NCBI RefSeq assembly: GCF_001685485.1
Contig: NZ_BDEL01000001.1
Location: 2,167,501-2,231,500 of the forward strand
Source of the DNA: Formosa haliotis
GTDB lineage: Bacteria > Bacteroidota > Bacteroidia > Flavobacteriales > Flavobacteriaceae
DNA: 64,000 nucleotides
Reading direction: 5' to 3'
A program made the translations under genes and the position numbers. Every line of letters begins with the position of its first letter. Position 1 is the stretch's first letter. Under the pieces are notes generated by a model. That model searched no databases, was not told the origin of the DNA, and was given only the letters and a program-made list of their open reading frames with translations. Shown here piece by piece: positions 11,197-56,946 of the stretch.

Positions 11197-14100
11197 TGTA
11201 TTTATTTACGAGATTCCTTTTCTTTTTCTTTAATAGTTTCTTCTGCGCCTTTTCCTCTTCTTTTTCCTTTTGTAAAAGGCGTTTATTTTCAGCTTTTTCT
11301 TCATCGGAATGGAACATGGCTCTCCATAACTCTTTGAATTTATTAAATTCTTGAGTAAATATTAAAGCCAATCCACTCACTACGGTTTGCCCATCGATAA
11401 CCGATTCGAACTGGTTTTTCTGAAAGGCTTGCAATCTATATTTTCCGGTAGGTGTAATTAAATATTCTAAACTAACATCGCCAATAAAAGGTGTGTCTTG
11501 ACTAGAAGATCCGCTGCCCTCGATATCAACCTCGCTACCAACACGAACAATAACACGATCGTGAAATAATTTTTTCTGAGCAGCCACATTTAATTGTGTA
11601 CGTTGTTCTGGCGAGTCGCCTTGGTAATCTGTAAAACTATTTAAACCAAAATCTAACTCTAAACCTGTGCTTCCTAATAATTTATCTGAAAACATATTTA
11701 GCTGATCGGAAATGGCATCGTTTAAGTTATCTCTCGCCATAGAAACAAATCCACCGCTACTACCATCGCTTCCTGCTTCTGGATAAAAACGTCCCATAAC
11801 CAGAAGTGAAAACACCTGACGGTTAAGCTCTCCTTCTTCTTCATTCACTTGCTGAACTCGCCCATAAACTTGCCCCCCAATAGCTCCTTGGTCATCTTCA
11901 GGCATATCTAAATTAAAGGATATTTTTGGATGCATTAATTCGCCGTCTATATTTAAATACACTTCAAAAGGTAAGGTTTGTTTGTATTTACTTTTTACAG
12001 CCGGGTCTGATCCCGAAATTTGTGAAGCCATTAAAGGCAGAGAGGAAGCTTTAACATTATACAGAGCTTTTACATCTAAATCGGCATCAAATGGGTTACC
12101 AGACCAGGATACACGACTTCCAGAAACTAACTCAAATCGTCTTGTTACCAGTTCGTAAAGACTCATCTCATAATGCCCGCTAGATACCGTGTACACCCCA
12201 GAAAGGTTCATTCTTCCGTTAGGATCCATTCTGAAAACAAAATCACCTTCTCCAGAAGTTTCAAAATTATCCCCACTATTTTCGTCTAATATTAAAGTTA
12301 CTTTAGCCTCGTTAGAAATTGAAAAATTAGCTTTAACATCGAAGCCTGTAACTTCTGAAGCTTCTTCTTGATTTCTGGTTAAAATAGCATCTGGATTATC
12401 GCGATTTACAAAAATAACCACGCCATCTCGCTCTTCTATATTTACAGCTGCCGAAGGCATCACATAAGTTACATCTGTCTTTGGATTTACATCGGCATTA
12501 ATATCTATAACCGGAATATTTAAATCGCCTTTTATAGTCCCTTGTGCATTAAAAGATAGGAAACCATAAATGATGTCGTTTTCCTCTTTCGTAGCGTTTA
12601 GCACCTGAAAATCGTCTGCATTTATAGTTAAATCGAAAGTTGGATTTGCAAAATCTTCTGTCCCCACTAAACCATTTAGCACAAAAGTACTTTGGTCTTC
12701 ATCTCTTATGGTAAAATTATTAAGTCGAATTCCTGAGTTATCGATGGCAAGTGTTTCATCAGACAACGTAAAACCGCTATTTAGTTTTGTAGCCTTAAAT
12801 TTAGAGTCGTGGAACACCAACTCCCCATTATATTGCGGATCTGAAGGCGATCCTTTAATAATAAAGTGCCCGGTAAACGCCCCTGAAGCATCTGAAACTT
12901 CACCAAGCGAAAGCCCTTGTAAAGCTGTCATTTTAAACTCGTTTATAGTGAGTTCGGCTTCTATTCTTGGGTTGGTTTGCGATGCAAAATAATCACCATT
13001 CATATCTAAATCGACATCACCCTCTTTAGTGGCTAAATTAAAGGTGTATTTACTACTGCTTTCAGAATTTCCATTAAGGGTTAGTGTTCCAAAATTAGTA
13101 TCTAATATGTTAAAATTAGTGATGTTTAAATCTGCTAAATACCCAATATTTTCAAATGGGTTTTGCACAGTAAAATCCCCACTTAAATCACCTCTAGCTA
13201 ATTCTTTATCGGGGTTTAAATAGGCTAGGAATTCGTTCAGTTTAAAATTCTCAAAATCTAGAGTAATATTATCCTTCTTTGCTTGATCATCGCGGGAATT
13301 AGCAATGGCTATATGCTGTTCATTTTTACTGAAGTTGAAATTCTTAAACCCTAAAATATGTTTACTATAAGTAAATGCATTGTCGTCTGGAACTTGCCAG
13401 TTTTCTCGATTTACAATGAACTCTTCTGGCAGAATATGAAAGCGTACACCGCTTTCTTCTCCAGATATTTTAGATTTCATTTGCATTAAAACCTCATCGC
13501 CATCGTAAGCAACCATGGTTAGGTCCATTTCGTTGTCTAACTGATTACCAGAAATATTGGTTTTTTTAATAAGTATTGGTCCTGCTGAGATTTCTTTAAA
13601 CCCTAAATTAAATACGAATTTATCGGGATCGGTGTCTAACGAAAAAGCCAAACTATCTATTTCATTTCCACTATAATTAATTAGTGGTGCTACGATATTT
13701 GCATTTAAAATTTTATCTGATTCATTAAAATTTACTGCAATATCTACAGTATCTATATTTTTTAAATTAGGCAGAAACACATCGTTTAAAACTGGAGCCT
13801 CACTCAATTTACCTGTTAATTTTAACTGCACAGGTTTGGTAGGAATCACTTGGGTAGAATCTAAATAAAAATAACTTAATACATGGTTTTTTAATGCGGC
13901 ACTAAAGGTTTGTGGATTAGCGTTAGATTCTAACTTTAAACTCAATAATTTATTAGTAATATTTAATGCCGTGGTATCTTTAGTTACGTGTGCATCCGCA
14001 TTAATATCTCCCAGTAAATACGTATTTTTATTAAAAACTATAGTCCCATTATCTACAGTACTTGTTACATCAAAAGCATCTGCATTCCCCTTAAAATCGG

Positions 14101-16273
14101 CGTGTAATTTTAGACCAGCACGAATATCTTTTTGCACCACACCAAGGGCTTGTAAATCGACCCCAATAACATCTAAATCGGCAATAATTTCTGGTGCTAT
14201 ACTATCTAGAACAATATCCGATTGCAAGTCTACATTTATGTTTTTGTCTTTGTAAGTCGAAGATACATGACCTTTACCATTTACAAGTTCGCCGGTAATA
14301 GGTAAATCTACAATCTCGTAATTTTTCAATTTAAAACTTGAAATTACGGCATCTAAATTGGCATCTAAATCGTTCATGGTTTTTCCCGAACCATTGGCTT
14401 TTAAGGAAATGCTTATAGGTCCTAAACTTTCGTTCTGTAAAAATTCGTTCAGTTTAAAGTCCTTAATCTCAATATCAGATGTAAAATCCAGCCCGTTTTC
14501 ACCATTATAACTCCCCGTTAATTCGGCAACACCCTGAGAAGTTGTTAACTCGGCTTGAGTACTAATATTATTTAATGTGCCTTTTAATGTACCCGACAAG
14601 GCAATCTCTTCAGGAAGATTAACTCCCAAATCTTTTTCGTTTACAAAATGGAGCACATCTGCTTTTATCGATTGCGCCTTAATTGGATTGATATCTAGTG
14701 TAAGGTTATCAACATCGGTTGCATTTTTGATTAAACCTGAAGCCGAAATACTTGTGGTTTTCCCCCAATTTAAAGCCGTGTTTTTTACAGCTATCTCAGA
14801 TAAATAACCTGTTGCATGGAGATGCCCCGTTATTAATCTCTGACTTAAACTATCGACATACGGATTAGCTTTTAAGTCTGGTTGAAAACGAAACACATCG
14901 TTAATATCTAATTGTAGCACAGGAAAAGAAAGTTCTAATTTCGATGTTTCTGGCGATTTCGCCAAAGCTGAAATAGTTGAATAATCTAAACGCGTGTCTC
15001 CTTTTACATGGTTCTTATTTAAAGCAATATCTATTCCCGATAATTTTAAAAACTGGTCCGTAGCTTCAGCCGTAAACTCACCTTTACTTATGTTTAACCC
15101 CGAGCCTTCGTTAAAATGTAAAGTTTCTAAATGCAATCCTGCGGTTTTATCTTTTAAATAAAAATCATTGGCCTGCAAGGTAAAGTCGTCTAAAACTATA
15201 GCATCTCCATTAAATTTATTTTTAAGTGGTTTGGCATTATTTACCGTGTATTGAACAGCATTATTTTCGAAATCGATTTGATCGACTTTTAGCTGAATTT
15301 CTGGCCACTCTATTGATGATGATGATGATGAACTAGAAACTTGTTCTTCTTTAGCTTGGGTTGTTGATTGATATACAATTTCGGAATCTTTTAACCCAAT
15401 CTCTTCTATAGAAAAACTTGAATTTAAAACATCGAATTCACCATCTTCAGCATAAAAACTGGAAATGTTAGTTCTTAAATTTATGCCTAGTTCTGAGGAC
15501 GCATAATGTGCTTTTGTGTTTTCAATTATAAAATCGTCTACAGATATATAGGGTAAAGTTGTAGCCGTTGTATCTTTTGACGGTGGCACAGGAGTTTGAA
15601 TAAAACTGATATCGGAATCTATAATTTTAGCATCGGAAGCTCTAAAATTCATGGCATCCAAATCGAAAGTTTTCATATCCAATTCAAGCTCGCCAACTTT
15701 ATAATAACTTTCTATCCCTAATACAGCATCGTTAAACACCAAATCGATGTCTTTTAAATGAATATCGCCAATGTTTATTTTAAAAGGTTTGGCATCGGGT
15801 TCAGGAACTGTTTCGGTTTGTAGAGTGTCTGCCGAGGCAAAAGCGTCGATTAAAAATTGAAAATTATAGCCCGCAATTGAGTCCTTCCGAATAATATTGG
15901 CTCGTAAACCTTCCCAATCAAGATTATCTAAATCGAAACCAGACCCCGTAATTAAAGGCCAAAGCGGAATATCTGCTTTAACCGATTTGGAGTAGATTAA
16001 CGTATCGCCTTTAGTGTCTTCAAGGTAAAGTCCGTTTAACTTAATATCTCCCCCAAAGGTTACAAAAAGTTTTTCAATATCTACTGTTGTGTGGGTTTTA
16101 TTAGACACAAATGAAGTTGCATAATTTACTATTAAATTTTGCCCCCACGGACTTCTAATTACCAACACTAAAAGTAGGAACAGAACAAAAAGGACAATGA
16201 CTATATTTCTTAAGATTTTTAATACCTTAAGTTTTTTAGTTGGTTTATTTTTTAGCTCTTTTTTTTCTTCCAA
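11180..16273 (-). CDS. tamB: TamB, inner-membrane-anchored AsmA-like translocation and assembly protein
   Basis: The 1697-residue protein has a single N-terminal membrane helix (about 21-42, IVIVLFVLFLLLVLVI) and then a long, repetitive beta-rich body typical of AsmA-like bridge proteins. The last 450 residues hold the conserved TamB (DUF490) domain with YGRVQQV, FSLLVMGRF and a terminal beta-strand region. The lysine-rich tail ends at the TamL overlap. Such proteins span the periplasm and act with TamA/TamL in outer-membrane biogenesis and possibly phospholipid transfer. An eight-serine run encoded by a TCA/TCATCATC-type triplet repeat lies near residue 315 and could vary in length without breaking the frame. 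Confidence 0.92.
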   Translation of the reverse strand: MEEKKELKNKPTKKLKVLKILRNIVIVLFVLFLLLVLVIRSPWGQNLIVNYATSFVSNKTHTTVDIEKLFVTFGGDIKLNGLYLEDTKGDTLIYSKSVKADIPLWPLITGSGFDLDNLDWEGLRANIIRKDSIAGYNFQFLIDAFASADTLQTETVPEPDAKPFKINIGDIHLKDIDLVFNDAVLGIESYYKVGELELDMKTFDLDAMNFRASDAKIIDSDISFIQTPVPPSKDTTATTLPYISVDDFIIENTKAHYASSELGINLRTNISSFYAEDGEFDVLNSSFSIEEIGLKDSEIVYQSTTQAKEEQVSSSSSSSSIEWPEIQLKVDQIDFENNAVQYTVNNAKPLKNKFNGDAIVLDDFTLQANDFYLKDKTAGLHLETLHFNEGSGLNISKGEFTAEATDQFLKLSGIDIALNKNHVKGDTRLDYSTISALAKSPETSKLELSFPVLQLDINDVFRFQPDLKANPYVDSLSQRLITGHLHATGYLSEIAVKNTALNWGKTTSISASGLIKNATDVDNLTLDINPIKAQSIKADVLHFVNEKDLGVNLPEEIALSGTLKGTLNNISTQAELTTSQGVAELTGSYNGENGLDFTSDIEIKDFKLNEFLQNESLGPISISLKANGSGKTMNDLDANLDAVISSFKLKNYEIVDLPITGELVNGKGHVSSTYKDKNINVDLQSDIVLDSIAPEIIADLDVIGVDLQALGVVQKDIRAGLKLHADFKGNADAFDVTSTVDNGTIVFNKNTYLLGDINADAHVTKDTTALNITNKLLSLKLESNANPQTFSAALKNHVLSYFYLDSTQVIPTKPVQLKLTGKLSEAPVLNDVFLPNLKNIDTVDIAVNFNESDKILNANIVAPLINYSGNEIDSLAFSLDTDPDKFVFNLGFKEISAGPILIKKTNISGNQLDNEMDLTMVAYDGDEVLMQMKSKISGEESGVRFHILPEEFIVNRENWQVPDDNAFTYSKHILGFKNFNFSKNEQHIAIANSRDDQAKKDNITLDFENFKLNEFLAYLNPDKELARGDLSGDFTVQNPFENIGYLADLNITNFNILDTNFGTLTLNGNSESSSKYTFNLATKEGDVDLDMNGDYFASQTNPRIEAELTINEFKMTALQGLSLGEVSDASGAFTGHFIIKGSPSDPQYNGELVFHDSKFKATKLNSGFTLSDETLAIDNSGIRLNNFTIRDEDQSTFVLNGLVGTEDFANPTFDLTINADDFQVLNATKEENDIIYGFLSFNAQGTIKGDLNIPVIDINADVNPKTDVTYVMPSAAVNIEERDGVVIFVNRDNPDAILTRNQEEASEVTGFDVKANFSISNEAKVTLILDENSGDNFETSGEGDFVFRMDPNGRMNLSGVYTVSSGHYEMSLYELVTRRFELVSGSRVSWSGNPFDADLDVKALYNVKASSLPLMASQISGSDPAVKSKYKQTLPFEVYLNIDGELMHPKISFNLDMPEDDQGAIGGQVYGRVQQVNEEEGELNRQVFSLLVMGRFYPEAGSDGSSGGFVSMARDNLNDAISDQLNMFSDKLLGSTGLELDFGLNSFTDYQGDSPEQRTQLNVAAQKKLFHDRVIVRVGSEVDIEGSGSSSQDTPFIGDVSLEYLITPTGKYRLQAFQKNQFESVIDGQTVVSGLALIFTQEFNKFKELWRAMFHSDEEKAENKRLLQKEKEEEKAQKKLLKKKKRNLVNKYIEEHF

Positions 16274-43335: not shown

Positions 43336-43366
43336 TACCTATGTATTTCAAATTGCCGTTCTCCTA

Positions 43367-43374
43367 TAGCTTTG
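43367..43374 (+). promoter_or_regulatory. -7 promoter element of the hydroxyproline operon
   Basis: TAGCTTTG fits TAnnTTTG and lies 20 bases before the ATG at 43395. It rules out the in-frame ATG at 43341 as the start, since that would lie upstream of the promoter. Confidence 0.6.
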
Positions 43375-43394
43375 TAAAAACTAAAATCACGATT

Positions 43395-44321
43395 ATGAGT
43401 ATTCAATGGAAAGGCATTATGCCAGCAGTAACCACAAAATTCACAAAAAACGATGAATTAGATTTTAAAATGTTCGAAACAAACATTAAAGCGCAACTCG
43501 ATGCTGGGGTACATGGCATCGTACTGGGTGGGACTTTAGGAGAGGCAAGCACTTTAATCGATGAAGAAAAACGAGCTTTAACCACCACTACTGTCGATAT
43601 CGTAAAAGGGCAAGTCCCTGTATTTATAAATATTGCCGAGCAAAGCACAAAGCAAGCCATTTTAGCCGCACAAAAAGCAGAAATCGATGGTGCCAAAGGC
43701 CTCATGATGTTACCTCCTATGCGCTATAAATCTGGCGATGCAGAAACTGTGGCTTATTTTAAAGCTGTGGCCAACAATACGTCCTTACCCATTATGGTTT
43801 ACAACAATCCGGTAGACTATAAAATTGAAGTCACTCACGATATGTTCGAAGAGATCCTAGTTTGCGACAACATTCAAGCAGTTAAAGAATCTACCCGAGA
43901 CACCACAAATATAACCCGCATAAAAAACCGTTTTGGCAACCGTTTAAAAATCATGACCGGTGTAGACACCATTGCTTTAGAAAGTTTATTATTAGGCGCC
44001 GAGGGCTGGGTCGCTGGACTCGTTTGCGCATTTCCAAAAGAAACTGTCGCCATTTACGAACTTCAAAAAGCTGGCCGCATACAAGAAGCGCTAGACATTT
44101 ACCGCTGGTTTATGCCGTTGCTAGAGTTAGATATTAGCCCTAAATTAGTACAAAACATTAAGCTGGCAGAAGTTGCAACCGGTATTGGCACAGAACACGT
44201 GCGTTTGCCTCGAATCCCTTTACAAGGCACAGAACGCACCCATGTTTTAAACGTTATAGAGCAAGCCTTAAAACACCGACCAACCTTGCCAGATTATAAA
44301 AATTTAAGTGTTTTAGTGTAG
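43395..44321 (+). CDS. Dihydrodipicolinate synthase family deaminase (pyrroline-4-hydroxy-2-carboxylate deaminase-like)
   Basis: From the ATG at 43395 the protein has 308 residues. Y136 (VYNNP) and the Schiff-base lysine K164 (AVKESTRD) are the catalytic pair of the DHDPS/N-acetylneuraminate lyase family, and GGTLGEAST replaces the GTTGE loop. In hydroxyproline breakdown an enzyme of this family converts 1-pyrroline-4-hydroxy-2-carboxylate to 2-oxoglutarate semialdehyde. The genes that follow supply the enzymes before and after this step, which makes the assignment likely. It is separated from the next gene by a repeat element. Confidence 0.87.
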   Translation: MSIQWKGIMPAVTTKFTKNDELDFKMFETNIKAQLDAGVHGIVLGGTLGEASTLIDEEKRALTTTTVDIVKGQVPVFINIAEQSTKQAILAAQKAEIDGAKGLMMLPPMRYKSGDAETVAYFKAVANNTSLPIMVYNNPVDYKIEVTHDMFEEILVCDNIQAVKESTRDTTNITRIKNRFGNRLKIMTGVDTIALESLLLGAEGWVAGLVCAFPKETVAIYELQKAGRIQEALDIYRWFMPLLELDISPKLVQNIKLAEVATGIGTEHVRLPRIPLQGTERTHVLNVIEQALKHRPTLPDYKNLSVLV

Positions 44322-44475: not shown

Positions 44476-46056
44476 ATGATTACAGGAAAAAATTATGTTG
44501 GTTTCACACCTTCAGCCAAAGGATCAAAAACTTATAAAACCTTCAATCCGCAGTTAAACGCAGAAAATGAAGACGTATTTACAGAAGCTACTTCCGAAGA
44601 AATTAATGAAGCCGTGGCTTTAGCTTCCAAAGCTTTTAGAACATATTCTAAAATATCTGGAACAGAGAAAGCCCTGTTCCTAAATACTATCGCCGAAGAG
44701 ATTTTAGCGCTAGACACACTCATAGAAACCTATTGTAAAGAATCTGGCCTACCTGAAGGTCGCGCACAAGGAGAACGCAATCGAACTATCGGACAGTTAC
44801 GTGCCTTTGCAGAATTAGTAGCAGAAGGGTCTTGGGTAGAGGCATCTATCGATACCGCTCAACCGGAGCGACAGCCCGTACCAAAACCCGATGTTCGTAA
44901 ACTGAATATTGGTTTAGGTCCTGTAGTTGTTTTCGGCGCTAGTAATTTTCCTTTAGCCTATTCCACTGCTGGTGGAGATACCGCAGCTGCACTCGCTGCC
45001 GGTTGTCCTGTAATTGTAAAGTCTCACCCCATGCATGCCGGCACGGGAGCTTTGGTAGCATCTGCAGTTGTTAAAGCTGCGAAAAAAACGAACATGCCAG
45101 ACGGCGTATTTTCAAATTTAAATAGTAGCGGAATTGAAGTTGGTCAAACTTTAGTAAAACATCCTGCGGTAAAGGCCGTTGGTTTTACGGGGAGTATTCG
45201 TGCAGGTCGTGCGCTTTACAATTTAGCTTCCGAACGTGAAGAACCTATTCCTGTTTTTGCAGAAATGGGCAGTATAAATCCCGTAGTCATGTTACCAAAA
45301 GCTCTTGCCGAAACAGGAAGCTCTTGGGCAAAAACGTACGCCAACTCAATAACTTTAGGAACAGGACAATTTTGCACCAATCCTGGTTTACTTTTCGGTG
45401 TAAAAGGAGACGATTTAACGCAATTTATAAATGTACTTGCCAAAGAAATTGTAAACATAGAACCGACATGCATGTTACACCCTAATATAAAATCGGCTTA
45501 CCAAAAAAATAAAGACCGGGCTTTAAATCAAGACCATATTTCTATAGTTGCCAATTACGATAAGGAGGTACAAATTAATTATGCCAAACAAGCTGTAATT
45601 ACTGTAGAGGGCACTACCTTTTTAGAAAACACGACCTTACACCAGGAGGTATTCGGACCATTCTCTATGGTTGTACAATGCGAAAATTTAGAGCAATTAA
45701 AAACCATAATTTATAAATTAGAAGGCCAATTAACAGGAACTATTTTGGCCTCCGATGGCGAACTAGAAGCGCATTTAGATGTGATGAATGCCGTCCAAAA
45801 TCGAGTAGGCAGATTAATCTTTAACGGCGTACCCACAGGTGTAGAGGTTTGTCCGTCTATGGTGCATGGAGGACCTTATCCGGCCTCTTCAGATAGCCGA
45901 TTTACAGCAGTAGGCACACAATCTATAAAACGCTGGGTAAGACCCTTTTGTTTTCAAGATTGGCCATTAAAACTATTACCTCTAGAGTTACAAAATGAAA
46001 ATCCGCTTGGTATACTTCGACTTGTAAACAACAAGCAAACTTCAGCTAAAATTTAG
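44476..46056 (+). CDS. Aldehyde dehydrogenase, probable 2-oxoglutarate semialdehyde dehydrogenase
   Basis: The 526-residue protein is a full-length ALDH: N157 (FGASNFPLAYS), K182 (VKSHP), catalytic base E263 (FAEMGSINPV) and catalytic C300 (GTGQFCTNPG). The long form with AEMGSxNPV is typical of the NADP-linked semialdehyde dehydrogenases of sugar-acid and hydroxyproline pathways. In this operon the reaction should be oxidation of 2-oxoglutarate semialdehyde to 2-oxoglutarate. It starts a tight five-gene run with spacers of one to three bases. Confidence 0.88.
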   Translation: MITGKNYVGFTPSAKGSKTYKTFNPQLNAENEDVFTEATSEEINEAVALASKAFRTYSKISGTEKALFLNTIAEEILALDTLIETYCKESGLPEGRAQGERNRTIGQLRAFAELVAEGSWVEASIDTAQPERQPVPKPDVRKLNIGLGPVVVFGASNFPLAYSTAGGDTAAALAAGCPVIVKSHPMHAGTGALVASAVVKAAKKTNMPDGVFSNLNSSGIEVGQTLVKHPAVKAVGFTGSIRAGRALYNLASEREEPIPVFAEMGSINPVVMLPKALAETGSSWAKTYANSITLGTGQFCTNPGLLFGVKGDDLTQFINVLAKEIVNIEPTCMLHPNIKSAYQKNKDRALNQDHISIVANYDKEVQINYAKQAVITVEGTTFLENTTLHQEVFGPFSMVVQCENLEQLKTIIYKLEGQLTGTILASDGELEAHLDVMNAVQNRVGRLIFNGVPTGVEVCPSMVHGGPYPASSDSRFTAVGTQSIKRWVRPFCFQDWPLKLLPLELQNENPLGILRLVNNKQTSAKI

Positions 46057-46059
46057 CCT

Positions 46060-47070
46060 ATGGCAAGAAAATCTTTCTTTTGTGTCGATGCCCATACCTG
46101 CGGTAACCCCGTACGTGTTGTGGCTGGTGGCGGACCGCTTTTAACGGGAAATTCTATAAGCGAAAAACGTCAGCATTTTCTAAAAGAATACGACTGGATT
46201 CGCAGAGGATTAATGTTCGAACCTCGGGGTCATGATATGATGAGTGGTAGTATTTTATTACCGCCTCAAAATCCTGAAAACGATTTGGCTATTCTATTTA
46301 TAGAAACCTCAGGTTGCTTACCCATGTGCGGTCATGGCACCATTGGCAGTATAACTATCGCTATAGAAGAAGGCTTAATTACACCTAAAATACCTGGCAA
46401 AATTTTAATGGAAGCCCCAGCTGGATTGGTAAAAGTAGAATATCAACAAACCGGAAAGAAAGTAGATTGGGTACGCATAACCAATGTAAAAAGTTATTTA
46501 GCAGCCGAAGGTTTAACCGTAAATTGCCCTGAATTGGGTGATATTACCTTCGATGTGGCCTATGGCGGAAATTACTATGCGATTATAGATCCGCAAGCAC
46601 ATTTTTCTGGTATTCATAACTTTTCGGCAAGTACCATTATTCAATATTCACAAATTATAAGGCAGCGCATTAACGAGATATACCCTAATCAATTTATTCA
46701 TCCAGAGCACGAAGCCATTCGCGATGTATCGCATATCCTATGGACAGGCAATCCTATAGACCCAAACTCGTCGGGAAGAAATGCAGTGTTTTATGGCGAT
46801 AAGGCCATAGATCGTTCGCCCTGCGGCACAGGAACCTCAGCAAGAATGGCTCAATTACATGCTAAAGGAAAATTGAAAATCGGTGAAACCTTTATTCATG
46901 AAAGCTTTATTGGGAGTAAATTTATTGGTCGTATTGTGGAAGAAACAAGTTTAAACGGAAAACCTGCTATAATTCCAAGTATTCAAGGTTGGGCCAAAGT
47001 TTTTGGATATAACACCATCATTATCGACGATGAAGACGATCCATACGCACACGGATTTCAAGTGATTTAA
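46060..47070 (+). CDS. 4-hydroxyproline 2-epimerase (proline racemase family)
   Basis: The 336-residue protein has both catalytic cysteines of an epimerase: C90 (PMCGHGTIG) and C255 (SPCGTGTSARMA). Dehydratases of the family carry Thr at the second place, so this is an epimerase or racemase. The VDAHTCGNP start and GHDMMSG are family features. It turns trans-4-hydroxy-L-proline into cis-4-hydroxy-D-proline, the first step of the pathway. It lies three bases after the ALDH gene and one base before the D-amino-acid oxidase gene, which takes the next step. Confidence 0.93.
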   Translation: MARKSFFCVDAHTCGNPVRVVAGGGPLLTGNSISEKRQHFLKEYDWIRRGLMFEPRGHDMMSGSILLPPQNPENDLAILFIETSGCLPMCGHGTIGSITIAIEEGLITPKIPGKILMEAPAGLVKVEYQQTGKKVDWVRITNVKSYLAAEGLTVNCPELGDITFDVAYGGNYYAIIDPQAHFSGIHNFSASTIIQYSQIIRQRINEIYPNQFIHPEHEAIRDVSHILWTGNPIDPNSSGRNAVFYGDKAIDRSPCGTGTSARMAQLHAKGKLKIGETFIHESFIGSKFIGRIVEETSLNGKPAIIPSIQGWAKVFGYNTIIIDDEDDPYAHGFQVI

Positions 47071-47071
47071 T

Positions 47072-48319
47072 ATGGGAAAAAACATTGTAATTATTGGTGG
47101 TGGAATTATCGGACTCTGTTCTGCTTACTACCTTTTAAAAGATGGGCATCAGGTTACGGTTATCGATAAATCAGATATCTCCAAAGGGGCATCATTTGTA
47201 AATGCGGGCTATATTACACCAAGTCATATTATTCCGTTAGCGGCTCCGGGAATGATTTCAAAAGGTATTAAATGGATGCTTAACGCTTCTAGTCCGTTTT
47301 ATGTAAAACCCCGATTAGACAAAGAGTTTTTGCAATGGGGTTGGGCTTTTAACAAATCCGCTTCTGCTTCAAAAGTGGCACGTGCCATTCCTATAATTAA
47401 ATCAATTAACTGCTTCGGAAGAGATTTATACGAAGATTTAAAAGCGGCAAACCATTTCAATTTTCATTACGAACGGAAAGGGCTTTTAATGTATTACAAA
47501 ACCGATAAAGCTGGTGAAGAAGAATGGAAAATAGGTCAACGGGCCATGACCGAGGGTTTACATGTAAAACATCTAAGCCAAAACGACGTCATAAAGTACG
47601 AACCCCATATAGCATTAAATATAAAAGGTGCCGTATATTATGATAGTGATGCCCATACAACTCCTAGTGCATTTATGCGTGAAATACTGAAGTATTTAAA
47701 ACAAAATGGCGTTAAATTTTACACTCACGAAACGGTTGAAGATATTACCCTAAACCATGGCGCCATTAAACACATTAAAACCAACAACCGGCAATTACCT
47801 TGCGACGAAGTGGTTTTAGCCGCTGGATCTTGGAGTCCGCTATTAACTAAAACATTTGGATTAAAAATTCCTATCCAAGCCGGAAAAGGCTATTGTATAA
47901 ACGTTAAGCGGCCAACTAAAATTCAAACACCAGCCATTTTGGTAGAAGCGAAAGTTGCTGTAACTCCTATGCAAGGATTTACTAGATTTGCAGGAACTAT
48001 GGAACTTAGCGGAATTAATCATAACATCAATCCTAAACGTATACAAGCCATTGCCGATGCTGCTGCCTCGTATTATGAAGGTTTAAAAATTACCACCGCA
48101 GAACAAGCTCAAGCCGATTGTGGTTTACGCCCCTGTTCTCCAGACGGACTACCTTATATTGGTAAATCTAAGCGCTGTAAAAATTTAACCATTGCCACCG
48201 GCCATGCGATGATGGGTTGGAGTTTAGGACCGGCGACAGGGAAACTAGTTTCAGAAGTTATTGCTAACAAAAAAACAACAATAGATCTGGAGGCTTTCCA
48301 TCCAGATAGAACTTTTTAA
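47072..48319 (+). CDS. FAD-dependent D-amino acid oxidoreductase, probable D-hydroxyproline dehydrogenase
   Basis: The 415-residue protein has an N-terminal FAD-binding fold (VIIGGGIIGLCSAYYLL, then VTVIDKS) and the DadA-like C-terminal part (GTMELSG, CGLRPCSPDGLPYIGKS, TGHAMMGWSLGPATGKLVSE). In the hydroxyproline pathway such an enzyme oxidises cis-4-hydroxy-D-proline to 1-pyrroline-4-hydroxy-2-carboxylate, the substrate of the deaminase at 43395. Electrons go to the quinone pool or oxygen; sequence does not tell which. It is one base from both neighbours. Confidence 0.9.
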   Translation: MGKNIVIIGGGIIGLCSAYYLLKDGHQVTVIDKSDISKGASFVNAGYITPSHIIPLAAPGMISKGIKWMLNASSPFYVKPRLDKEFLQWGWAFNKSASASKVARAIPIIKSINCFGRDLYEDLKAANHFNFHYERKGLLMYYKTDKAGEEEWKIGQRAMTEGLHVKHLSQNDVIKYEPHIALNIKGAVYYDSDAHTTPSAFMREILKYLKQNGVKFYTHETVEDITLNHGAIKHIKTNNRQLPCDEVVLAAGSWSPLLTKTFGLKIPIQAGKGYCINVKRPTKIQTPAILVEAKVAVTPMQGFTRFAGTMELSGINHNINPKRIQAIADAAASYYEGLKITTAEQAQADCGLRPCSPDGLPYIGKSKRCKNLTIATGHAMMGWSLGPATGKLVSEVIANKKTTIDLEAFHPDRTF

Positions 48320-48320
48320 T

Positions 48321-49616
48321 ATGAGATACAATCAAATATCAAATCAACTATTTATAAAAAACAGAGCACGTTTTACGGCTAAAATGGTATCAAATACTAT
48401 GGCTATTTTAACCTCGAACGATGTAAAACATAATAATGCAGATGATGTAATGGGCTTTTCCCAAAACAACGATTTGTTTTATTTAAGCGGTATAGACCAG
48501 GATGAAACAATCTTGGTTTTATTTCCTGAAGCACAGAAGCCGGAAAACCGAGCCATCCTCTTTATTACTGAAACTAACGAACAAATGAGGATTTGGGACG
48601 GCGAAAAATTAACCAAAGCACAAGCCTCAGAAATCTCAGGGGTGTCTCGTGTAGAATGGGTTCACGATTTCGAAAAAATATTACAACTCATGGCATTCGA
48701 AGCCGATGGGTTTTACTTAGGTCACAACGAACATATAAAGCGAGTAACCCACAATCAACAAACCCGACAAGACCGCATGATTTTGTGGGTTAAAGAAAAA
48801 TATCCTTTACACAATTTACACCGTGTGGCAAAAATAACAAGAGATTTACGTCCGGTTAAATCGGCAGAAGAATTGGCTTTAATGCAACAAGCCGCCGATA
48901 TTAGTGTAGAGAGTTTTAAAATGGCTTTACAAGCGGCTAAACCCAATATAAAAGAGTACGTTATCGAAGCCGAATTAATTTACAATTTAACCCGATCGGG
49001 TGCTTTACGCCATGCGTTTAAACCTATCGTGGCTTCCGGAAAAAATGCCTGTGCCTTACACTACAACACCAATGATGACATGTGTAAAGATGGCGAGATG
49101 ATTCTTATGGATTTTGGGGTATGCTATGCCAATTATAATAGCGATACTACCCGTTGTTTTCCCGTAAACGGAAAGTTTTCAGAACGTCAAAAAGCAGTGT
49201 ATAATGCTGTTTTAAGATGTTTAAAAGCAGGAAGCAAATTGCTAAAACCTGGTGTAATTCCTTCAGAATACGAAACAAAAATGGCCAAATTAGTAGAAGC
49301 TGAATTGATTAATTTAGGATTATTTACTGCTGAAGATGTTGCAAATCAAGATGAAGACAAACCACTTTATAAGAAATATTATATGCATGGCTCGGCGCAT
49401 TATATTGGTTTAGATGTTCATGATGTTGGTTTATATACTCGTCCGTTAGAAGTTGGTATGGTTTTAACTTGCGAACCTGGAATTTACATTTCGGAAGAAG
49501 GTATTGGCTGTCGTTTAGAGAATGATTATATAATTACCGAGGATGGAAATAGAAATATGACAGCTGCGATGCCCATAGAAGTTGAAGATATTGAAGCATT
49601 AATGCAGAAAAAATAA
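48321..49616 (+). CDS. Aminopeptidase P family M24 metallopeptidase
   Basis: The 431-residue protein has an N-terminal creatinase-like domain and a C-terminal pita-bread domain with the metal ligands in order: LMDFGV, NSDTTRCF, HGSAHYIGLDVHD, TCEPGIYI and RLENDYIITEDG. The family releases an N-terminal residue from Xaa-Pro bonds. Its place in the hydroxyproline operon suggests that it acts on Xaa-Pro or Xaa-Hyp peptides in the cytoplasm to feed the pathway. It has no signal peptide. It is followed three bases later by a second M24 gene. Confidence 0.92.
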   Translation: MRYNQISNQLFIKNRARFTAKMVSNTMAILTSNDVKHNNADDVMGFSQNNDLFYLSGIDQDETILVLFPEAQKPENRAILFITETNEQMRIWDGEKLTKAQASEISGVSRVEWVHDFEKILQLMAFEADGFYLGHNEHIKRVTHNQQTRQDRMILWVKEKYPLHNLHRVAKITRDLRPVKSAEELALMQQAADISVESFKMALQAAKPNIKEYVIEAELIYNLTRSGALRHAFKPIVASGKNACALHYNTNDDMCKDGEMILMDFGVCYANYNSDTTRCFPVNGKFSERQKAVYNAVLRCLKAGSKLLKPGVIPSEYETKMAKLVEAELINLGLFTAEDVANQDEDKPLYKKYYMHGSAHYIGLDVHDVGLYTRPLEVGMVLTCEPGIYISEEGIGCRLENDYIITEDGNRNMTAAMPIEVEDIEALMQKK

Positions 49617-50862: not shown

Positions 50863-50899
50863 AAAAGGCGTTAGAGGTGTGAAACTAACGCCTTTTTTT
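50863..50899. terminator. Terminator between the hydroxyproline operon and the convergent fusion gene
   Basis: AAAAGGCGTTAG and CTAACGCCTTTT make a perfect 12-base stem with a ten-base loop, followed by seven T in all on the plus strand. The opposite strand ends in four T, so it may also serve the convergent gene at 50905. Confidence 0.9.
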
Positions 50900-50904
50900 A
50901 TGAA

Positions 50905-53900
50905 TTAATAGTGCTTCATAAAATCTTCGGCAAGGATACGTTCTAAATAAAACAGAAGCTCTTTTGCATGTTCTTTACTAAAAACAAGAGGCGGTTTTAT
51001 TTTTAAAACATTATGGTCTGGGCCATCAATACTCATTAAAATACTATGATCCTTCATGCGGTTGGCAAGATAATCGGTATGCTTGGCGAGCGGTTTCAGA
51101 TTAGCATCTACCAGTTCTATGCCTAAAAACAATCCTTGTCCTCTTACATCACCAATTATAGGATATTTAACAGCTAAAGCCTTTAGTTCTGCCTTTAAAA
51201 ATTCACCTACAGTTAATGCATTTTTTTGAAGTTGTTCTCGTTTTATTATTTGCAAAACCTCCGTCCCAATGGCACAGGACACCGGATTTCCTCCAAATGT
51301 GTTAAAATATTCCATACCATTTGCAAAGGTGTCGGCAACTTCTCGAGTACACGCTACGGCCGCCAAAGGATGTCCATTACCAAGTGGTTTTCCTATGGTC
51401 ACGATATCTGGAATAACATCATGGAGTTGAAATCCCCAAAAGGTTTTTCCCATACGGCCACATCCGGTTTGCACTTCATCAGAAATACAAAGTCCGCCAG
51501 CAGCTCTTACTTTTTGATATGCTAATTTTAAAAACCCTTCAGGCAGTTCAATTTGGCCACCACAACTAATAATTGGTTCTATAATAAAAGCTGCAAGACC
51601 TCGATTTTTATGTTGAATACGGTCAATTTGTTTATCAATATTTTCGGCATATAATTTACCCGTATCTTTTCCTCTATATGTTCCGCGGAAGGCATCGGGA
51701 ATTGGGATAATATGTGTGTACTCGGGAGCGCCTTGTCCGCCTTTGCCTTCAAATTTATACGATGAGATATCAATGCACATGTTACTATTTCCGTGATAGC
51801 CCATTTCTGACGCTATAATATCGCGTTCGCCCGTAACCGTTTTTGCCATTCGAATGGCTAACTCGTTAGCTTCACTTCCCGAGTTTACAAAATGTAACAC
51901 ACTCAATTCCGGTGGTAAAGTTTCTAATAAGGCTTCCGTTAACTTATTGATGTTCGGATGCAAATAGCGCGTGTTGGTATTAATTAAAGCCATTTGGTAT
52001 TGTCCTGCTTTTACCACTTCAAAATGTTCATGCCCCACATGCGCTACATTGTTTACGGTATCTAAATATTTGGCACCATTTTCATCCATTAAATAGACGC
52101 CGGCCCCTCTAACCATTTTTATAGGCGTGTTGTATTGTAAACTTAAACCTTTGCCTAAATGCTGTTTTCTATAAGCTATTAAGTCAGCATTTGATGGTTG
52201 ACGGACTTCTAAATTTTTATCTAATTTGAAAAATGCATTTGGATTTGGGCAAATACTTTTCCAAACTGAAAGTTCTTTATAATAGGTAACCCCTCTAAAA
52301 TCGGCAGTATAATTGAGCATGGAAAGCATGACTTGAAAATGTAAATGCGGCGCCCAATTCCCGTTTTCTTTCGAAGTTCCTAAACATCCGATGCATTCCC
52401 CTTGTTTTATAATATCGCCAACCTTTTTGGACAAGGCGCTCTCTATAGACAAATGTCCATACAACGTATAAAAATGGTTGTTCTCGAATTGATGTTTTAA
52501 AATAATGAGTCCGCCATAGTTTTTATCACCTTCGGCATTTACTGCAACGATAACTTCGCCATCGCATAATGCGTGAATTGGCATTTGTGCAGGGAGCCAA
52601 TAATCGACTCCCAAATGAATCGTTCTACTCGTTCTGCCACTGTTACCAATAGTATCGTAATCGGTAGAGGTATACAACGGGCGAGGTTCTAAATAGCCGC
52701 CAGCGATAATCTTGGAAGGCTGCTGCTTTTGTAATGTATTAAGTTTAAACTGAAATACATCGAGATCGTTAAATTCCTCTTGATGCCCAATCCAAGCACT
52801 CGACACACTTAAATCTAAAGGTGCGATATCTTGTTTTTTAATCGTTGGAAAAAGTTGTGTAAGACTAAAATTCTGATGTTCTATCCATTTATAAAATGCC
52901 TTTTCGTTTGGATGAGCATTAAAACCACAGGCCGCTCTAAAGCTATACTGTGCAAATTCTGGCGAAATCGCTCTCCATTTTTTTAGTAATTCCCAAGCTG
53001 GTTTTTCGCTAATTAAAAGATAGGTGTTTTCGGGCTCCTCAATTTTATTTATAGCCGATTTAGTAACCGAAATTACCAATCGCATAGCAATAGCATGATA
53101 TAAGTGCTCGAGTTCAAGCTCTTGAAGAGGATAACTTTTATGATACCCTTTTACTAAGGGTAAGGCAGCTTCTAACGGATTTTGATGATGCATAATCGCA
53201 TATGCACAAGCTATGGCCACATCATTTATAATTTGGGTATACACAGCATCGCCATAATCTATAACGGCAATCACTTTGGGCTGAATTAATGCTGAACTTA
53301 CAATGACATTATTATCATTCGCATCATTATGAACAATACTTTTTCTTAGCGTATTGTAAACTTCAAAAGTAGCTTCGAAGCCTGAAATAAAATGTTTAAG
53401 AATTTGTTTCTCTTCCGAAGAAAATAAATGCAACTGCTGTTTTGTCCATAAACTTTGAGCCACATCCCAATCAAATACCTTATGCGCTTCTGGGTGATTA
53501 AAACCATTTAAAGCCGAGGTTACCCGTCCGCATTGTTCGCCGAGGCTAAAACGCAAATCGTCTAATTGCGGATTTACACGACTCCATAACCTACCAGAAA
53601 TCCAAGTAAGCACACGTACAAAACGAACCTGATTGGAAGCATCTGTAAATGATGAAATAAGATTCCCCTTGTTATCCGGAACCGCTTTTGGAGTGCAAAT
53701 CTCCATGGTACTATGTTCAAGATGTTGCAATAATTCCTGCTGAAATTCAAGTTGTTTTTTACTTTCACCTGGACGAGAAACTTTTAAGATATAAGACAGT
53801 CCCTCGGCTGTTTTTATCTTAAAATTATAATCAACTTCTCCAGGAAGCGGGGTTACAAACCCTGAAATTCCATATAAATCTGAAGCTATATTTTTCGCGT

Positions 53901-53934
53901 GGTCTACAGTTAATGCAAGAGTATTCTGTTCCAT
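50905..53934 (-). CDS. Three-part fusion: APH-type kinase, M23 peptidase domain, class III PLP enzyme
   Basis: The 1009-residue protein joins three domains. Residues 1-350 are an aminoglycoside-phosphotransferase-type kinase (VHNDANDNN with H202, D204, N209; IDYGD with D226). Residues about 400-560 are an M23/LytM peptidase domain with its zinc ligands H440, D444, H530 and H532 intact. Residues about 590-1009 are a class III aminotransferase fold (NSGSEAN, ISDEVQTGCGRMG, and the PLP lysine K849 in IGKPLGNGHP). In vertebrates, hydroxylysine kinase is of the first type, and phosphohydroxylysine and phosphoethanolamine phospho-lyases are of the third. The gene converges on a hydroxyproline operon, so hydroxylysine from collagen is a fitting substrate. 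There is no signal peptide, which makes the M23 part puzzling. Confidence 0.85.
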   Translation of the reverse strand: MEQNTLALTVDHAKNIASDLYGISGFVTPLPGEVDYNFKIKTAEGLSYILKVSRPGESKKQLEFQQELLQHLEHSTMEICTPKAVPDNKGNLISSFTDASNQVRFVRVLTWISGRLWSRVNPQLDDLRFSLGEQCGRVTSALNGFNHPEAHKVFDWDVAQSLWTKQQLHLFSSEEKQILKHFISGFEATFEVYNTLRKSIVHNDANDNNVIVSSALIQPKVIAVIDYGDAVYTQIINDVAIACAYAIMHHQNPLEAALPLVKGYHKSYPLQELELEHLYHAIAMRLVISVTKSAINKIEEPENTYLLISEKPAWELLKKWRAISPEFAQYSFRAACGFNAHPNEKAFYKWIEHQNFSLTQLFPTIKKQDIAPLDLSVSSAWIGHQEEFNDLDVFQFKLNTLQKQQPSKIIAGGYLEPRPLYTSTDYDTIGNSGRTSRTIHLGVDYWLPAQMPIHALCDGEVIVAVNAEGDKNYGGLIILKHQFENNHFYTLYGHLSIESALSKKVGDIIKQGECIGCLGTSKENGNWAPHLHFQVMLSMLNYTADFRGVTYYKELSVWKSICPNPNAFFKLDKNLEVRQPSNADLIAYRKQHLGKGLSLQYNTPIKMVRGAGVYLMDENGAKYLDTVNNVAHVGHEHFEVVKAGQYQMALINTNTRYLHPNINKLTEALLETLPPELSVLHFVNSGSEANELAIRMAKTVTGERDIIASEMGYHGNSNMCIDISSYKFEGKGGQGAPEYTHIIPIPDAFRGTYRGKDTGKLYAENIDKQIDRIQHKNRGLAAFIIEPIISCGGQIELPEGFLKLAYQKVRAAGGLCISDEVQTGCGRMGKTFWGFQLHDVIPDIVTIGKPLGNGHPLAAVACTREVADTFANGMEYFNTFGGNPVSCAIGTEVLQIIKREQLQKNALTVGEFLKAELKALAVKYPIIGDVRGQGLFLGIELVDANLKPLAKHTDYLANRMKDHSILMSIDGPDHNVLKIKPPLVFSKEHAKELLFYLERILAEDFMKHY

Positions 53935-55845: not shown

Positions 55846-56946
55846 TCACAAAAACGTCTTTTGTTTTTGGTGAAATGCATCGGCCTGAAGTTGCATTAAT
55901 TCGCGAGCCTTTTTCTTTTTGTATTGATAAAGTTCATCCTCTTCTGCAATATCTGTATACACCTTATTGTTAAGTGTAGCATCTGTAGTAATTATTAATT
56001 TACGCTCACTTACTTTTTGATGAACCCAAGATTTTATAGCCGTGTCTTCATCTTCCAATTTATAATCGTATTCGCCTTTTGGAGTTATTAGTTTAGACAA
56101 AATAGGGGCAGTCTCTATAGCCAAAAACAGCAGGAAAATAAAAAATGAAGGCAACCAAGGCAAGGTCCCTAAAGCCGTTACTCGAGCCATAAGACCACCA
56201 AAATTATCTATTATAGGCTGAGAGCTGTTAACTTGAGTCTGATAATCTGATTTTAATTGAGAAATCTCATTTTCTAAAGTTTTAATTTTAATTGCATTTT
56301 CGGTTTTTAACGTTTGTAACTCTCCTAACGCAGCATCATGTTTGTCTCGTTTTTCTTTGTAAACAGGACCTTTTCCTAGTTTTTTAGTCCCCGATGTTCC
56401 CTCGGCTTCAGAAATATAAATAGCATAAAGCGCATCAACTTCTGCTGTTTTAGTGTCTATTTCAGTTTTTAGGCTTTCTATTTCATGTTCTTTAGCTTCA
56501 ATATTTGGATGAAATTGATTGGCTATCTGATTTTGGTTTGCTAAGGTTAAATCGTTTTTCTGCTCTAATAACACCTGATTGATTTCCTTTTCAAAAATCT
56601 TTAATTCTAAGGGTTTAGAAATCACTACAGCTATAATAACTGCTAAAAATAATCTGGGAATGACTTGAAGAAATTCATCTAGAAAAGCATTCCGTTTTTT
56701 TAAAGTCGATACAATAAAGCGATCTAAATTAAAAATAAGCAAACCCCAAATTACTCCAAAAACAAGGGCAAGCATAACACTATCGAAAACCATGTGAAGT
56801 GCAAAACCTGAAGCTATACTAGCCATAAGGGCGGTAAAAAAAACGGTAGCACCAATACCTGCATATTTATTTTGTTCGCCATTAGAGCAGGTTTTTAAAA
56901 TGGTTTGATCTGCTCCAGAACACAGAATGAAGAATTGTTTTAACAT
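55846..56946 (-). CDS. DUF4407 membrane protein with coiled coil
   Basis: The 366-residue protein has four hydrophobic segments (about 30-50, 55-75, 90-110 and 255-275) and a long charged coiled-coil region between about 115 and 240 (KEHEIESLKTEIDTKTAEVDA in part). IWGLLIFNLDRFIVSTLKK is a mark of the DUF4407 family. The coiled coil lies between membrane segments three and four and so projects on one side. The function is unknown. It is a single gene, convergent with the STAS pair. Confidence 0.88.
   Translation of the reverse strand: MLKQFFILCSGADQTILKTCSNGEQNKYAGIGATVFFTALMASIASGFALHMVFDSVMLALVFGVIWGLLIFNLDRFIVSTLKKRNAFLDEFLQVIPRLFLAVIIAVVISKPLELKIFEKEINQVLLEQKNDLTLANQNQIANQFHPNIEAKEHEIESLKTEIDTKTAEVDALYAIYISEAEGTSGTKKLGKGPVYKEKRDKHDAALGELQTLKTENAIKIKTLENEISQLKSDYQTQVNSSQPIIDNFGGLMARVTALGTLPWLPSFFIFLLFLAIETAPILSKLITPKGEYDYKLEDEDTAIKSWVHQKVSERKLIITTDATLNNKVYTDIAEEDELYQYKKKKARELMQLQADAFHQKQKTFL

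What the first reader, a model, noticed from the sequence alone, without database searches (positions are those of the whole stretch)
50905..53934. Kinase-M23-PLP fusion as a possible hydroxylysine-degrading enzyme
Kinase and PLP parts belong to the families of vertebrate hydroxylysine kinase and 5-phosphohydroxylysine phospho-lyase, which act in sequence. The gene lies convergent to a hydroxyproline operon, and collagen is the main source of both amino acids. An M23 domain with all zinc ligands between them, in a protein without a signal peptide, is unexplained and could be a structural or regulatory part.
Basis: inference. Interest (0 to 1): 0.72.

Follow-up and report, generated by a model that had tools for sequence, protein, structure and literature searches.

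The report
Bacterial collagen hydroxylysine-degrading fusion enzyme
A bacterium carries one large enzyme that probably breaks down hydroxylysine, an amino acid typical of collagen; relatives of the gene often sit beside genes that would strip collagen's sugars or eat its other unusual amino acids, and a peptidase-like third active site in its middle is kept intact for reasons not yet tested.

Summary
In detail: window 50905-53934(-) encodes a 1009-aa protein with an APH kinase, an M23 domain with complete zinc site and a class III PLP domain. It belongs to a database family without assigned function (NF004799/PRK06148, 1136.8 against cut-off 1128). The PLP part is closest to human ethanolamine-phosphate phospho-lyase. 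Genome context favours hydroxylysine. In the window's family 16 of 33 full-length genes lie within 20 kb of a 4-hydroxyproline epimerase, and 14 of the 15 genomes with a YgjK-like GH63 hydrolase have it within 20 kb of the gene; the M23-less paralogues give 0 of 21 for each. Some relatives neighbour beta-galactosidases, galactose genes, 3-hydroxyproline-type genes or P6C dehydrogenase, in unrelated arrangements; 68 of 80 distant loci show no such marker. Together these would dismantle collagen's Glc-Gal-hydroxylysine. The M23 active site is intact in 145 of 163 rows and mostly decayed or absent otherwise (the sampling favours three-domain proteins), so it is probably catalytic; its substrate is unknown. 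That kinase-lyase fusions point to hydroxylysine breakdown is probably already in print (2012 vertebrate work, not read). No activity was tested.

The parts
50905..53934 (-). kinase-M23-PLP fusion gene (1009 aa), called KMP here
   Evidence: ORF; NF004799/PRK06148 1136.8 against cut-off 1128
53179..53850 (-). APH-type kinase domain, residues 29-252; catalytic D204 and D226
   Evidence: Pfam PF01636, 80.8 bits; both Asp in 118 of 118 M23-type proteins of 985 aa or more; their catalytic role is recalled from the APH family
52327..52620 (-). Peptidase_M23 domain, residues 439-536, active-site residues H440, D444, H494, H530, H532
   Evidence: Pfam PF01551, 62.6 bits; HDHHH in 145 of 163 family rows; nearest solved chains LytM and lysostaphin. 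Which of these bind zinc is recalled from M23 structures
50932..52131 (-). class III PLP domain, residues 602-1001; PLP lysine K849
   Evidence: Pfam PF00202; 6tor human ethanolamine-phosphate phospho-lyase is the best PDB match, TMt 0.94, 49%
50864..50895 (.). 11-bp inverted repeat, likely two-way terminator between the convergent operon and KMP
   Evidence: read; the scan reports 8 pairs of it as a + strand terminator-like site, in a region where shuffles give as many such sites by chance
43341..44321 (+). DHDPS-family enzyme, likely pyrroline-4-hydroxy-2-carboxylate deaminase
   Evidence: PF00701; role from operon context
44476..46056 (+). aldehyde dehydrogenase, likely alpha-ketoglutarate semialdehyde dehydrogenase
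   Evidence: PF00171; best NCBIfam match 2,5-dioxovalerate dehydrogenase, far below cut-off
46060..47070 (+). 4-hydroxyproline epimerase
   Evidence: NF010578 581 against cut-off 376
47072..48319 (+). DAO-family oxidoreductase, likely D-hydroxyproline dehydrogenase
   Evidence: PF01266; role from operon context
48321..49616 (+). aminopeptidase P-type M24 peptidase
   Evidence: PF00557 and PF05195
49620..50840 (+). prolidase-type M24 peptidase
   Evidence: PF00557 and PF01321
42399..43241 (-). divergent gene, called AraC-type regulator here
   Evidence: ORF; the label is mine, no profile was run on it; homologues recur beside the hydroxyproline genes

Best explanation
KMP is a cytosolic enzyme of hydroxylysine breakdown, most likely serving collagen. 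Inferred steps: (1) 5-hydroxylysine, freed of its Glc-alpha1,2-Gal sugar by glycosidases encoded beside the gene in a number of relatives, enters the cell free or in small peptides; (2) the kinase phosphorylates its hydroxyl; (3) the PLP domain eliminates phosphate and ammonia, giving 2-aminoadipate 6-semialdehyde / P6C; (4) P6C dehydrogenase, encoded elsewhere in this genome, oxidises it. The M23 domain is most likely an active zinc hydrolase that frees the substrate from peptides (about 0.35), as PepP/PepQ would do for the hydroxyproline branch. Shown: domains, residues, predicted fold, context. Inferred: every reaction.
For: Domains and residues; PLP fold nearest ethanolamine-phosphate phospho-lyase and A1RDF1 phospholyase. 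Within 20 kb of 4-Hyp epimerase: 16 of 33 full genes, 0 of 21 M23-less paralogues; of the YgjK-like GH63 hydrolase: 14 of 33, i.e. 14 of the 15 genomes counted as having it, 0 of 21; of a 3-Hyp-dehydratase-like gene: 7 of 33, 0 of 21. L044: GH63 + two GH2 beta-galactosidases + KMP + sodium symporter + galactokinase + GalT in a row; GH63 plus a beta-galactosidase-type gene in 11 of 32 flavobacterial M23-type loci. Other arrangements: HypD-epimerase-DAO-KMP on one strand in L181, L183, L184, L199 and epimerase-DAO-KMP in L200; MGH1/GH63-clan hydrolase + GH42 or GH1 in Alphaproteobacteria, L079, L088, L089, L091, L092, L158; SusD + GH63 + GH42 + M23-less kinase-lyase in L194; galactokinase in L172 (272 against cut-off 226.65). 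P6C dehydrogenase beside KMP in L059 (816.9 against 730), L117 (780.3) and L105 (tblastn only); the only two of 149 genomes with a second copy at E<=1e-120, G006 and G021, have one within about 12 kb of KMP. The window genome has one copy, G000:C1:2491053-2492477. Collagen's Glc-alpha1,2-Gal-Hyl: PMC8626586 passages. Amino-acid ABC binding proteins neighbour KMP in L092 and L111 (best match the Lys/Arg/ornithine model TIGR01096, below its cut-off).
Against: No activity data. 8 of 32 flavobacterial M23-type loci, 68 of 80 distant loci and 15 of 27 other Bacteroidota M23-type loci show none of the marker genes in the DNA held, though some contigs are short. The window genome has no GH63 at E<=1e-20. 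The M23-less paralogues also co-occur with the epimerase in whole genomes (17 of 21), so co-occurrence alone is weak; proximity is the better signal. Contexts are partly inherited, and the Fisher tests ignore phylogeny. P6C dehydrogenase is in 138 of 149 genomes, so its mere presence says little. The YgjK-like neighbour scores below the alpha-glucosidase cut-off (326.5 against 625), as does the 3-Hyp-dehydratase-like one (364.3 against 540), and the rhizobial hydrolase is annotated amylo-alpha-1,6-glucosidase: their substrates are guesses. An M23-less kinase-lyase also sits with GH63 + GH42 (L194), so M23 is not needed everywhere. The nearest solved lyase acts on ethanolamine phosphate.
Confidence: 0.75

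Rival explanations
1. The kinase-lyase acts on ethanolamine or 1-amino-2-propanol, giving acetaldehyde or propionaldehyde, as in old work on Pseudomonas and Erwinia (recalled).
For: [quoted passage not shown] human ETNPPL falls inside the bacterial family, with three M23-less fusions (SH-aLRT 93, not starred).
Against: Neighbours, where informative, are hydroxyproline, sugar hydrolase, galactose and P6C dehydrogenase genes; P6C dehydrogenase has no use for acetaldehyde. No search for ethanolamine genes near KMP was run.
Confidence: 0.13
2. The loci serve plant hydroxyproline-rich glycoproteins rather than collagen, and KMP handles some other amino alcohol met there.
For: Hyp and galactosidases also fit plant wall proteins; S. 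meliloti and other rhizobia carry KMP.
Against: 3-Hyp-type genes, a YgjK-like hydrolase and P6C dehydrogenase fit collagen's 3-Hyp and Glc-Gal-Hyl better; hydroxyproline itself has no primary amine for this chemistry (recalled chemistry).
Confidence: 0.08
3. The M23 domain is a folded spacer that holds kinase and lyase together; zinc is only structural (this concerns M23 alone and is compatible with the hydroxylysine reading).
For: M23-less kinase-lyases exist, one beside GH63 and GH42 (L194), and so does a two-gene form (L191). PRK06149-type proteins keep a decayed stretch of similar length. No signal peptide.
Against: All five active-site residues, not just metal ligands, are intact in 145 of 163 rows; in the four PRK06149-like rows most go together.
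Confidence: 0.35

Closest known systems
NF004799 / PRK06148 (database family, 'hypothetical protein'; NCBI products read 'aminotransferase class III-fold pyridoxal phosphate-dependent enzyme')
   Same: Same three-domain architecture over the full length, score above cut-off
   Different: The family has no assigned function; this report adds context and residue conservation
Vertebrate hydroxylysine kinase (AGPHD1/HYKK) and 5-phosphohydroxylysine phospho-lyase (AGXT2L2/PHYKPL), Veiga-da-Cunha 2012 (recalled; paper not held)
   Same: Proposed to catalyse the same two consecutive reactions; same broad fold classes
   Different: Separate proteins without M23 (recalled). Their sequences were not compared here
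Ethanolamine-phosphate phospho-lyase, human ETNPPL (PDB 6tor) and A. aurescens A1RDF1 (5g4i)
   Same: PLP domain 49% and 39% identical, TMt 0.94 and 0.92
   Different: Chains of 499 and 446 residues without kinase or M23
M23 glycyl-glycine endopeptidases LytM and lysostaphin (2b44, 5nmy)
   Same: Same HxxxD...HxH pattern, about 41 bits
   Different: Those act on the cell wall (recalled); this domain sits in a protein without signal peptide; the similarity is too weak to carry specificity
NF004800 / PRK06149
   Same: Kinase and PLP parts, similar length, encoded next to KMP in L121, L127, L129
   Different: M23 active site lost; L129 scores 1553.2 against cut-off 973 and has no M23 match in Pfam
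PGGHG, the vertebrate GH65 glucosidase for Glc-Gal-Hyl
   Same: Would do the same job as the GH63-type neighbour (passages of PMC8626586)
   Different: Different glycoside hydrolase family; specificity of the bacterial neighbour untested

Membership tests
NF004799/PRK06148 | Full-length profile score above the curated cut-off | tested here: met
   1136.8 against 1128, residues 5-1004
Class III PLP phospho-lyases | Class III fold with PLP lysine, nearest kin a phospho-lyase rather than a transaminase | tested here: met
   K849 in 118 of 118; 6tor and 5g4i lead both the sequence and the fold list
Class III PLP phospho-lyases | Phosphate and ammonia elimination from a phosphorylated amino alcohol | not testable with these tools
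   needs enzyme assay
Hydroxylysine kinase (HYKK) | APH-type kinase with catalytic Asp pair | tested here: met
   PF01636 80.8 bits; D204 and D226 in 118 of 118
Hydroxylysine kinase (HYKK) | Closer to HYKK than to other APH kinases | not tested
   no HYKK sequence fetched; no PDB hit for the kinase part
Peptidase family M23 | HxxxD and HxH site in an M23 fold | tested here: met
   PF01551 62.6 bits; HDHHH
Peptidase family M23 | Export to the cell wall space, usual for the family though not strictly defining (recalled) | tested here: not met
   no signal-like start, by eye only
Peptidase family M23 | Peptide bond hydrolysis | not testable with these tools
   needs enzyme assay
Collagen amino-acid utilisation locus | Repeated physical link to hydroxyproline and Glc-Gal glycosidase genes | tested here: met
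   24 of 33 full genes in the family sample within 20 kb of at least one of three markers; the window itself is linked to Hyp genes only; 12 of 80 distant loci have a marker

The most novel reading that the evidence does not exclude
KMP is a three-step enzyme: its M23 domain is a working cytosolic zinc peptidase that cuts collagen-derived hydroxylysyl (glycyl) peptides and hands hydroxylysine to the kinase and then the lyase. It is the hub of a widespread bacterial system that dismantles collagen's Glc-Gal-hydroxylysine, built repeatedly from unrelated glycosidases, and the vertebrate hydroxylysine enzymes descend from this bacterial fusion family.
Probability: 0.25. Interest if true: 0.8.

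Novelty: new variant of a known kind. Interest (0 to 1): 0.62.

Why it matters
Microbial use of hydroxylysine, and of its Glc-Gal glycoside, looks like a gap in collagen turnover: the titles and abstract openings listed by paper searches here (several lists were cut) showed no bacterial route. The gene gives a marker for one and testable gene sets in ordinary bacteria, including S. meliloti, where the gene (probably SMb20973) is labelled a 4-aminobutyrate transaminase (passage of PMC12542648). The intact M23 site is a sharp open question: a third, unassigned active site in a metabolic enzyme, kept in members from many phyla.

Tried and rejected
Considered and dropped: (a) SMb20931 as the S. 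meliloti sugar-binding neighbour, induced by raffinose, melibiose and lactose (PMC3333776 passage): my guess of the locus tag was wrong, since recalled exo gene numbering puts it on the far side of the exo genes; SMb20973 fits by recalled gene order and by its label (PMC12542648 passage), but the 1021 record carries no annotation here. (b) The neighbouring hydrolase as a GH65 PGGHG homologue: Pfam shows an MGH1/GH63 type instead. (c) Presence of P6C dehydrogenase as a test: useless, 138 of 149 genomes have it; only second copies inform. (d) M23-less proteins as a pure non-collagen control: L194 breaks that. (e) Foldseek against viral models gave nothing I could use. (f) The galactokinase-like plus DHDPS-family neighbours in L165, L169, L171-L173 and L176 were not explained further; the galactokinase call rests on L172 alone.

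Limits and dropped rows: marker thresholds were set by hand and include galactokinase- and DAO-like genes; loci reach about 8.5-9 kb either side. In one search matches of 55% identity or more were taken as 4-Hyp epimerase (83 genomes) and the 30-36% ones as 3-Hyp-dehydratase-like (19 genomes); only the L060 member was run against profiles, and it is below the cut-off. High-GC ORF calls contain shadow ORFs, so tblastn was used for marker counts. The GH1 set (6 loci) rests on one Pfam-checked member plus tblastn. Of the places, all 32 further full copies but only 8 of 21 M23-less ones were fetched; of 47 places, 35 were fetched; of 630 plasmid records with a match (87 covering at least 80% of the protein), 6 were looked at around the gene. 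One search counted only proteins of 985 aa or more. Searches left out rows under 700 aa and two overlapping ORFs (L178, L129), and one search also a wrong-frame ORF of L104; L161 and L181 are identical rows. The tree is a quick one, rooted on a long branch (A1RDF1). One search counts two cut-off copies (G033, G037) as KMP, one search does not; fragments in G079 and G062 are in neither; G112's weak GH63 hit was left out of both.
Full report
What is there. The minus-strand ORF 50905-53934 codes for 1009 residues without a break. Pfam finds an APH kinase (29-252), an M23 peptidase domain (439-536) and a class III PLP domain (602-1001), each above its cut-off. The protein scores 1136.8 bits against NF004799 (PRK06148), cut-off 1128, a family that bears the name 'hypothetical protein'; source names in the protein search read 'aminotransferase class III-fold pyridoxal phosphate-dependent enzyme' or 'peptidase M23'. 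The architecture is therefore in the databases already and common; its function is not assigned. An AlphaFold2 model from 42 aligned relatives is confident nearly throughout (pLDDT 90.7, pTM 0.90), with a loose hinge at 574-578. The best solved fold is human O-phosphoethanolamine phospho-lyase (6tor, TMt 0.94, 49% identity), then the A. aurescens phospholyase. The kinase part has no PDB sequence relative at E<=1.

Neighbourhood in the window. Ending 64 bases away, on the opposite strand, is an operon with the enzyme families of the 4-hydroxyproline route and two M24 peptidases. An 11-bp inverted repeat at 50864-50895 followed by T's lies between them, so the two are probably separate transcripts. 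P6C dehydrogenase, which would take the product onward, is elsewhere in the genome at G000:C1:2491053-2492477.

Linkage in the same family. Among 149 genomes of the window's family, 33 have the full gene, 2 more have cut-off copies, and 21 have a paralogue of about 755 residues with kinase and PLP parts but no M23. Within 20 kb of the 4-hydroxyproline epimerase lie 16 of the 33 and 0 of the 21 (17 of these 21 genomes have the epimerase, on another contig or far away). A YgjK-like GH63 hydrolase is found in 15 genomes (a sixteenth, weak hit was left out); in 14 of them it lies within 20 kb of the full gene (13 within 8 kb), and the 15th carries only the M23-less paralogue, elsewhere. A gene resembling 3-hydroxyproline dehydratase lies within 20 kb in 7 of 33. 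In all, 24 of 33 have at least one of the three markers within 20 kb. Presence and absence point the same way: GH63 in 14 of 35 genomes with the gene and 1 of 114 without (Fisher p 1.8e-9), 3-Hyp type 15 of 35 and 4 of 114, epimerase 29 of 35 and 54 of 114; these tests ignore shared descent, and the epimerase is also enriched with the M23-less type (17 of 21). The window's congener G014 has no match for KMP, epimerase or P6C dehydrogenase at the limits used.

What the neighbours do. In L044 the order is regulator-like gene, aldose-epimerase-like gene, GH63, GH2 beta-galactosidase, KMP, second GH2, sodium symporter, galactokinase, galactose-1-phosphate uridylyltransferase. In L060 KMP is preceded, on its own strand, by a pyrroline-2-carboxylate reductase (379.5 against 322), a racemase-family 3-Hyp-dehydratase-like protein (364.3, below the 540 cut-off) and the GH63 gene, with 4-Hyp genes on the other side. 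The GH63 protein is MGH1/GH63-clan by Pfam and scores 326.5 against the E. coli YgjK-type alpha-glucosidase model, below its cut-off of 625. Lipoprotein-like starts, by eye, suggest export of the L060 GH63 and the L047 GH2. Collagen's hydroxylysine carries Glc-alpha1,2-Gal (PMC8626586, passages), so an alpha-glucosidase, a beta-galactosidase, galactose enzymes, 3-Hyp and 4-Hyp enzymes, Xaa-Pro peptidases and a hydroxylysine enzyme would together cover collagen's unusual parts. That E. coli YgjK accepts Glc-alpha1,2-Gal is recalled and comes from no call.

Independent arrangements. A Bacteroidota sample has matches in 44 of 345 genomes. In another family of it HypD, epimerase, DAO and KMP run on one strand (L181, which has the same protein as L161; L183, L184, L199; L200 with epimerase and DAO). 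In S. meliloti the gene follows amino-acid transport genes and an SDR gene, and precedes a sugar ABC transporter, an MGH1/GH63-clan hydrolase annotated amylo-alpha-1,6-glucosidase, a regulator-like gene and a beta-galactosidase (GH42 is inferred from similarity to the Pfam-checked L194 protein). In L088, L089, L091 and L092 (Tabrizicola, Stagnihabitans and two Pseudomonadota MAGs) the same clan of hydrolase is joined by a GH1. In L194 SusD, GH63, GH42 and an M23-less kinase-lyase stand in a row. L172 has a galactokinase two genes upstream. Different glycosidase families for the same predicted pair of jobs argue for function rather than inheritance alone. In L059 the next gene is a P6C dehydrogenase (816.9 against 730); one is also beside KMP in L117 (780.3) and L105 (tblastn). 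Only two of 149 genomes hold a second P6C dehydrogenase at E<=1e-120, G006 and G021, and in each one copy lies within about 12 kb of KMP. That product line fits hydroxylysine and not ethanolamine.

Results against. With the thresholds, at least one marker gene appears in 24 of 32 flavobacterial M23-type loci, 0 of 8 M23-less ones, 12 of 80 genome-contig loci, 12 of 27 other Bacteroidota M23-type loci, 1 of 6 plasmid loci and 1 of 8 M23-less, degenerate or split loci. So most distant members show no collagen link in the DNA held. In one search one sequence cluster, found in 29 of the distant loci, has 27 members on the strand opposite to KMP, some directly beside it; such a gene is annotated Lrp/AsnC regulator in L080, L081 and L083. 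Amino-acid ABC genes also recur. These suggest an amino-acid substrate without naming it.

The M23 domain. In 118 proteins of 985 residues or more H440, D444, H530 and H532 are invariant and H494 is kept in 117, on a par with kinase D204, D226 and PLP K849. In the larger set HDHHH holds in 145 of 163 rows; 13 lack the domain, 4 PRK06149-like rows have lost most of the site, and one differs at a single position. Caution: the 80 genome-contig loci were found through PLP patterns but kept by score against a three-domain query, and the genome searches used a three-domain profile, so the share of proteins with M23 is inflated; the exact active-site residues were not required by either. On the PLP tree the intact state is spread over the whole family, absence arises in at least two places, and human ETNPPL groups with three M23-less fusions (SH-aLRT 93, not starred). 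This argues for a working metal site. The nearest solved domains are LytM and lysostaphin, glycyl-glycine endopeptidases, at only about 41 bits. A cytosolic peptidase that frees hydroxylysine from collagen peptides is the most economical guess, parallel to PepP and PepQ in the hydroxyproline operon; L194 shows that the route may exist without it.

What is known. The library does not hold Veiga-da-Cunha 2012. [quoted passage not shown] that the sentence carries this citation is inferred from the order of references. It agrees with my recollection that bacterial kinase-lyase fusions were a clue in that work. The fusion idea is therefore probably not new. The glycosidase, P6C and M23 evidence was not seen in the listings of searches of the open library, which lacks most subscription papers.

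Verdict. A new variant of a known kind: most likely a bacterial hydroxylysine kinase/phospho-lyase for collagen (0.75), carrying a probably active third domain of unknown substrate.

Noticed in passing
L059:11748-17340: Beside KMP: P6C dehydrogenase, 3-oxoadipyl-CoA thiolase (650.7 against cut-off 597), a HemL-like class III enzyme below cut-off, and both CoA-transferase subunits: looks like an unusual lysine/aminoadipate route through 3-oxoadipate.
   Followed up: no
L121, L127, L129 (about 13240-16180): PRK06149-type paralogue with decayed M23 site encoded next to an intact KMP, on the opposite strand (profile run on L129 only).
   Followed up: partly
L134:8989-12048: Full three-domain protein in a contig titled MAG: Candidatus Thorarchaeota archaeon.
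   Followed up: no
L191:8303-10659: Kinase and PLP parts as two adjacent separate genes without M23.
   Followed up: no
L194-L196 and human ETNPPL: Human ethanolamine-phosphate phospho-lyase groups with three M23-less bacterial fusions (SH-aLRT 93, not starred), hinting that the animal enzymes come from this family.
   Followed up: partly
L195:15819-17819: A brxL-type BREX gene lies about 4 kb from an M23-less kinase-lyase.
   Followed up: no
window 55846-56946: Conserved 366-aa protein, membrane-type by eye, also near KMP in 13 of 32 flavobacterial loci; may only reflect shared gene order.
   Followed up: no
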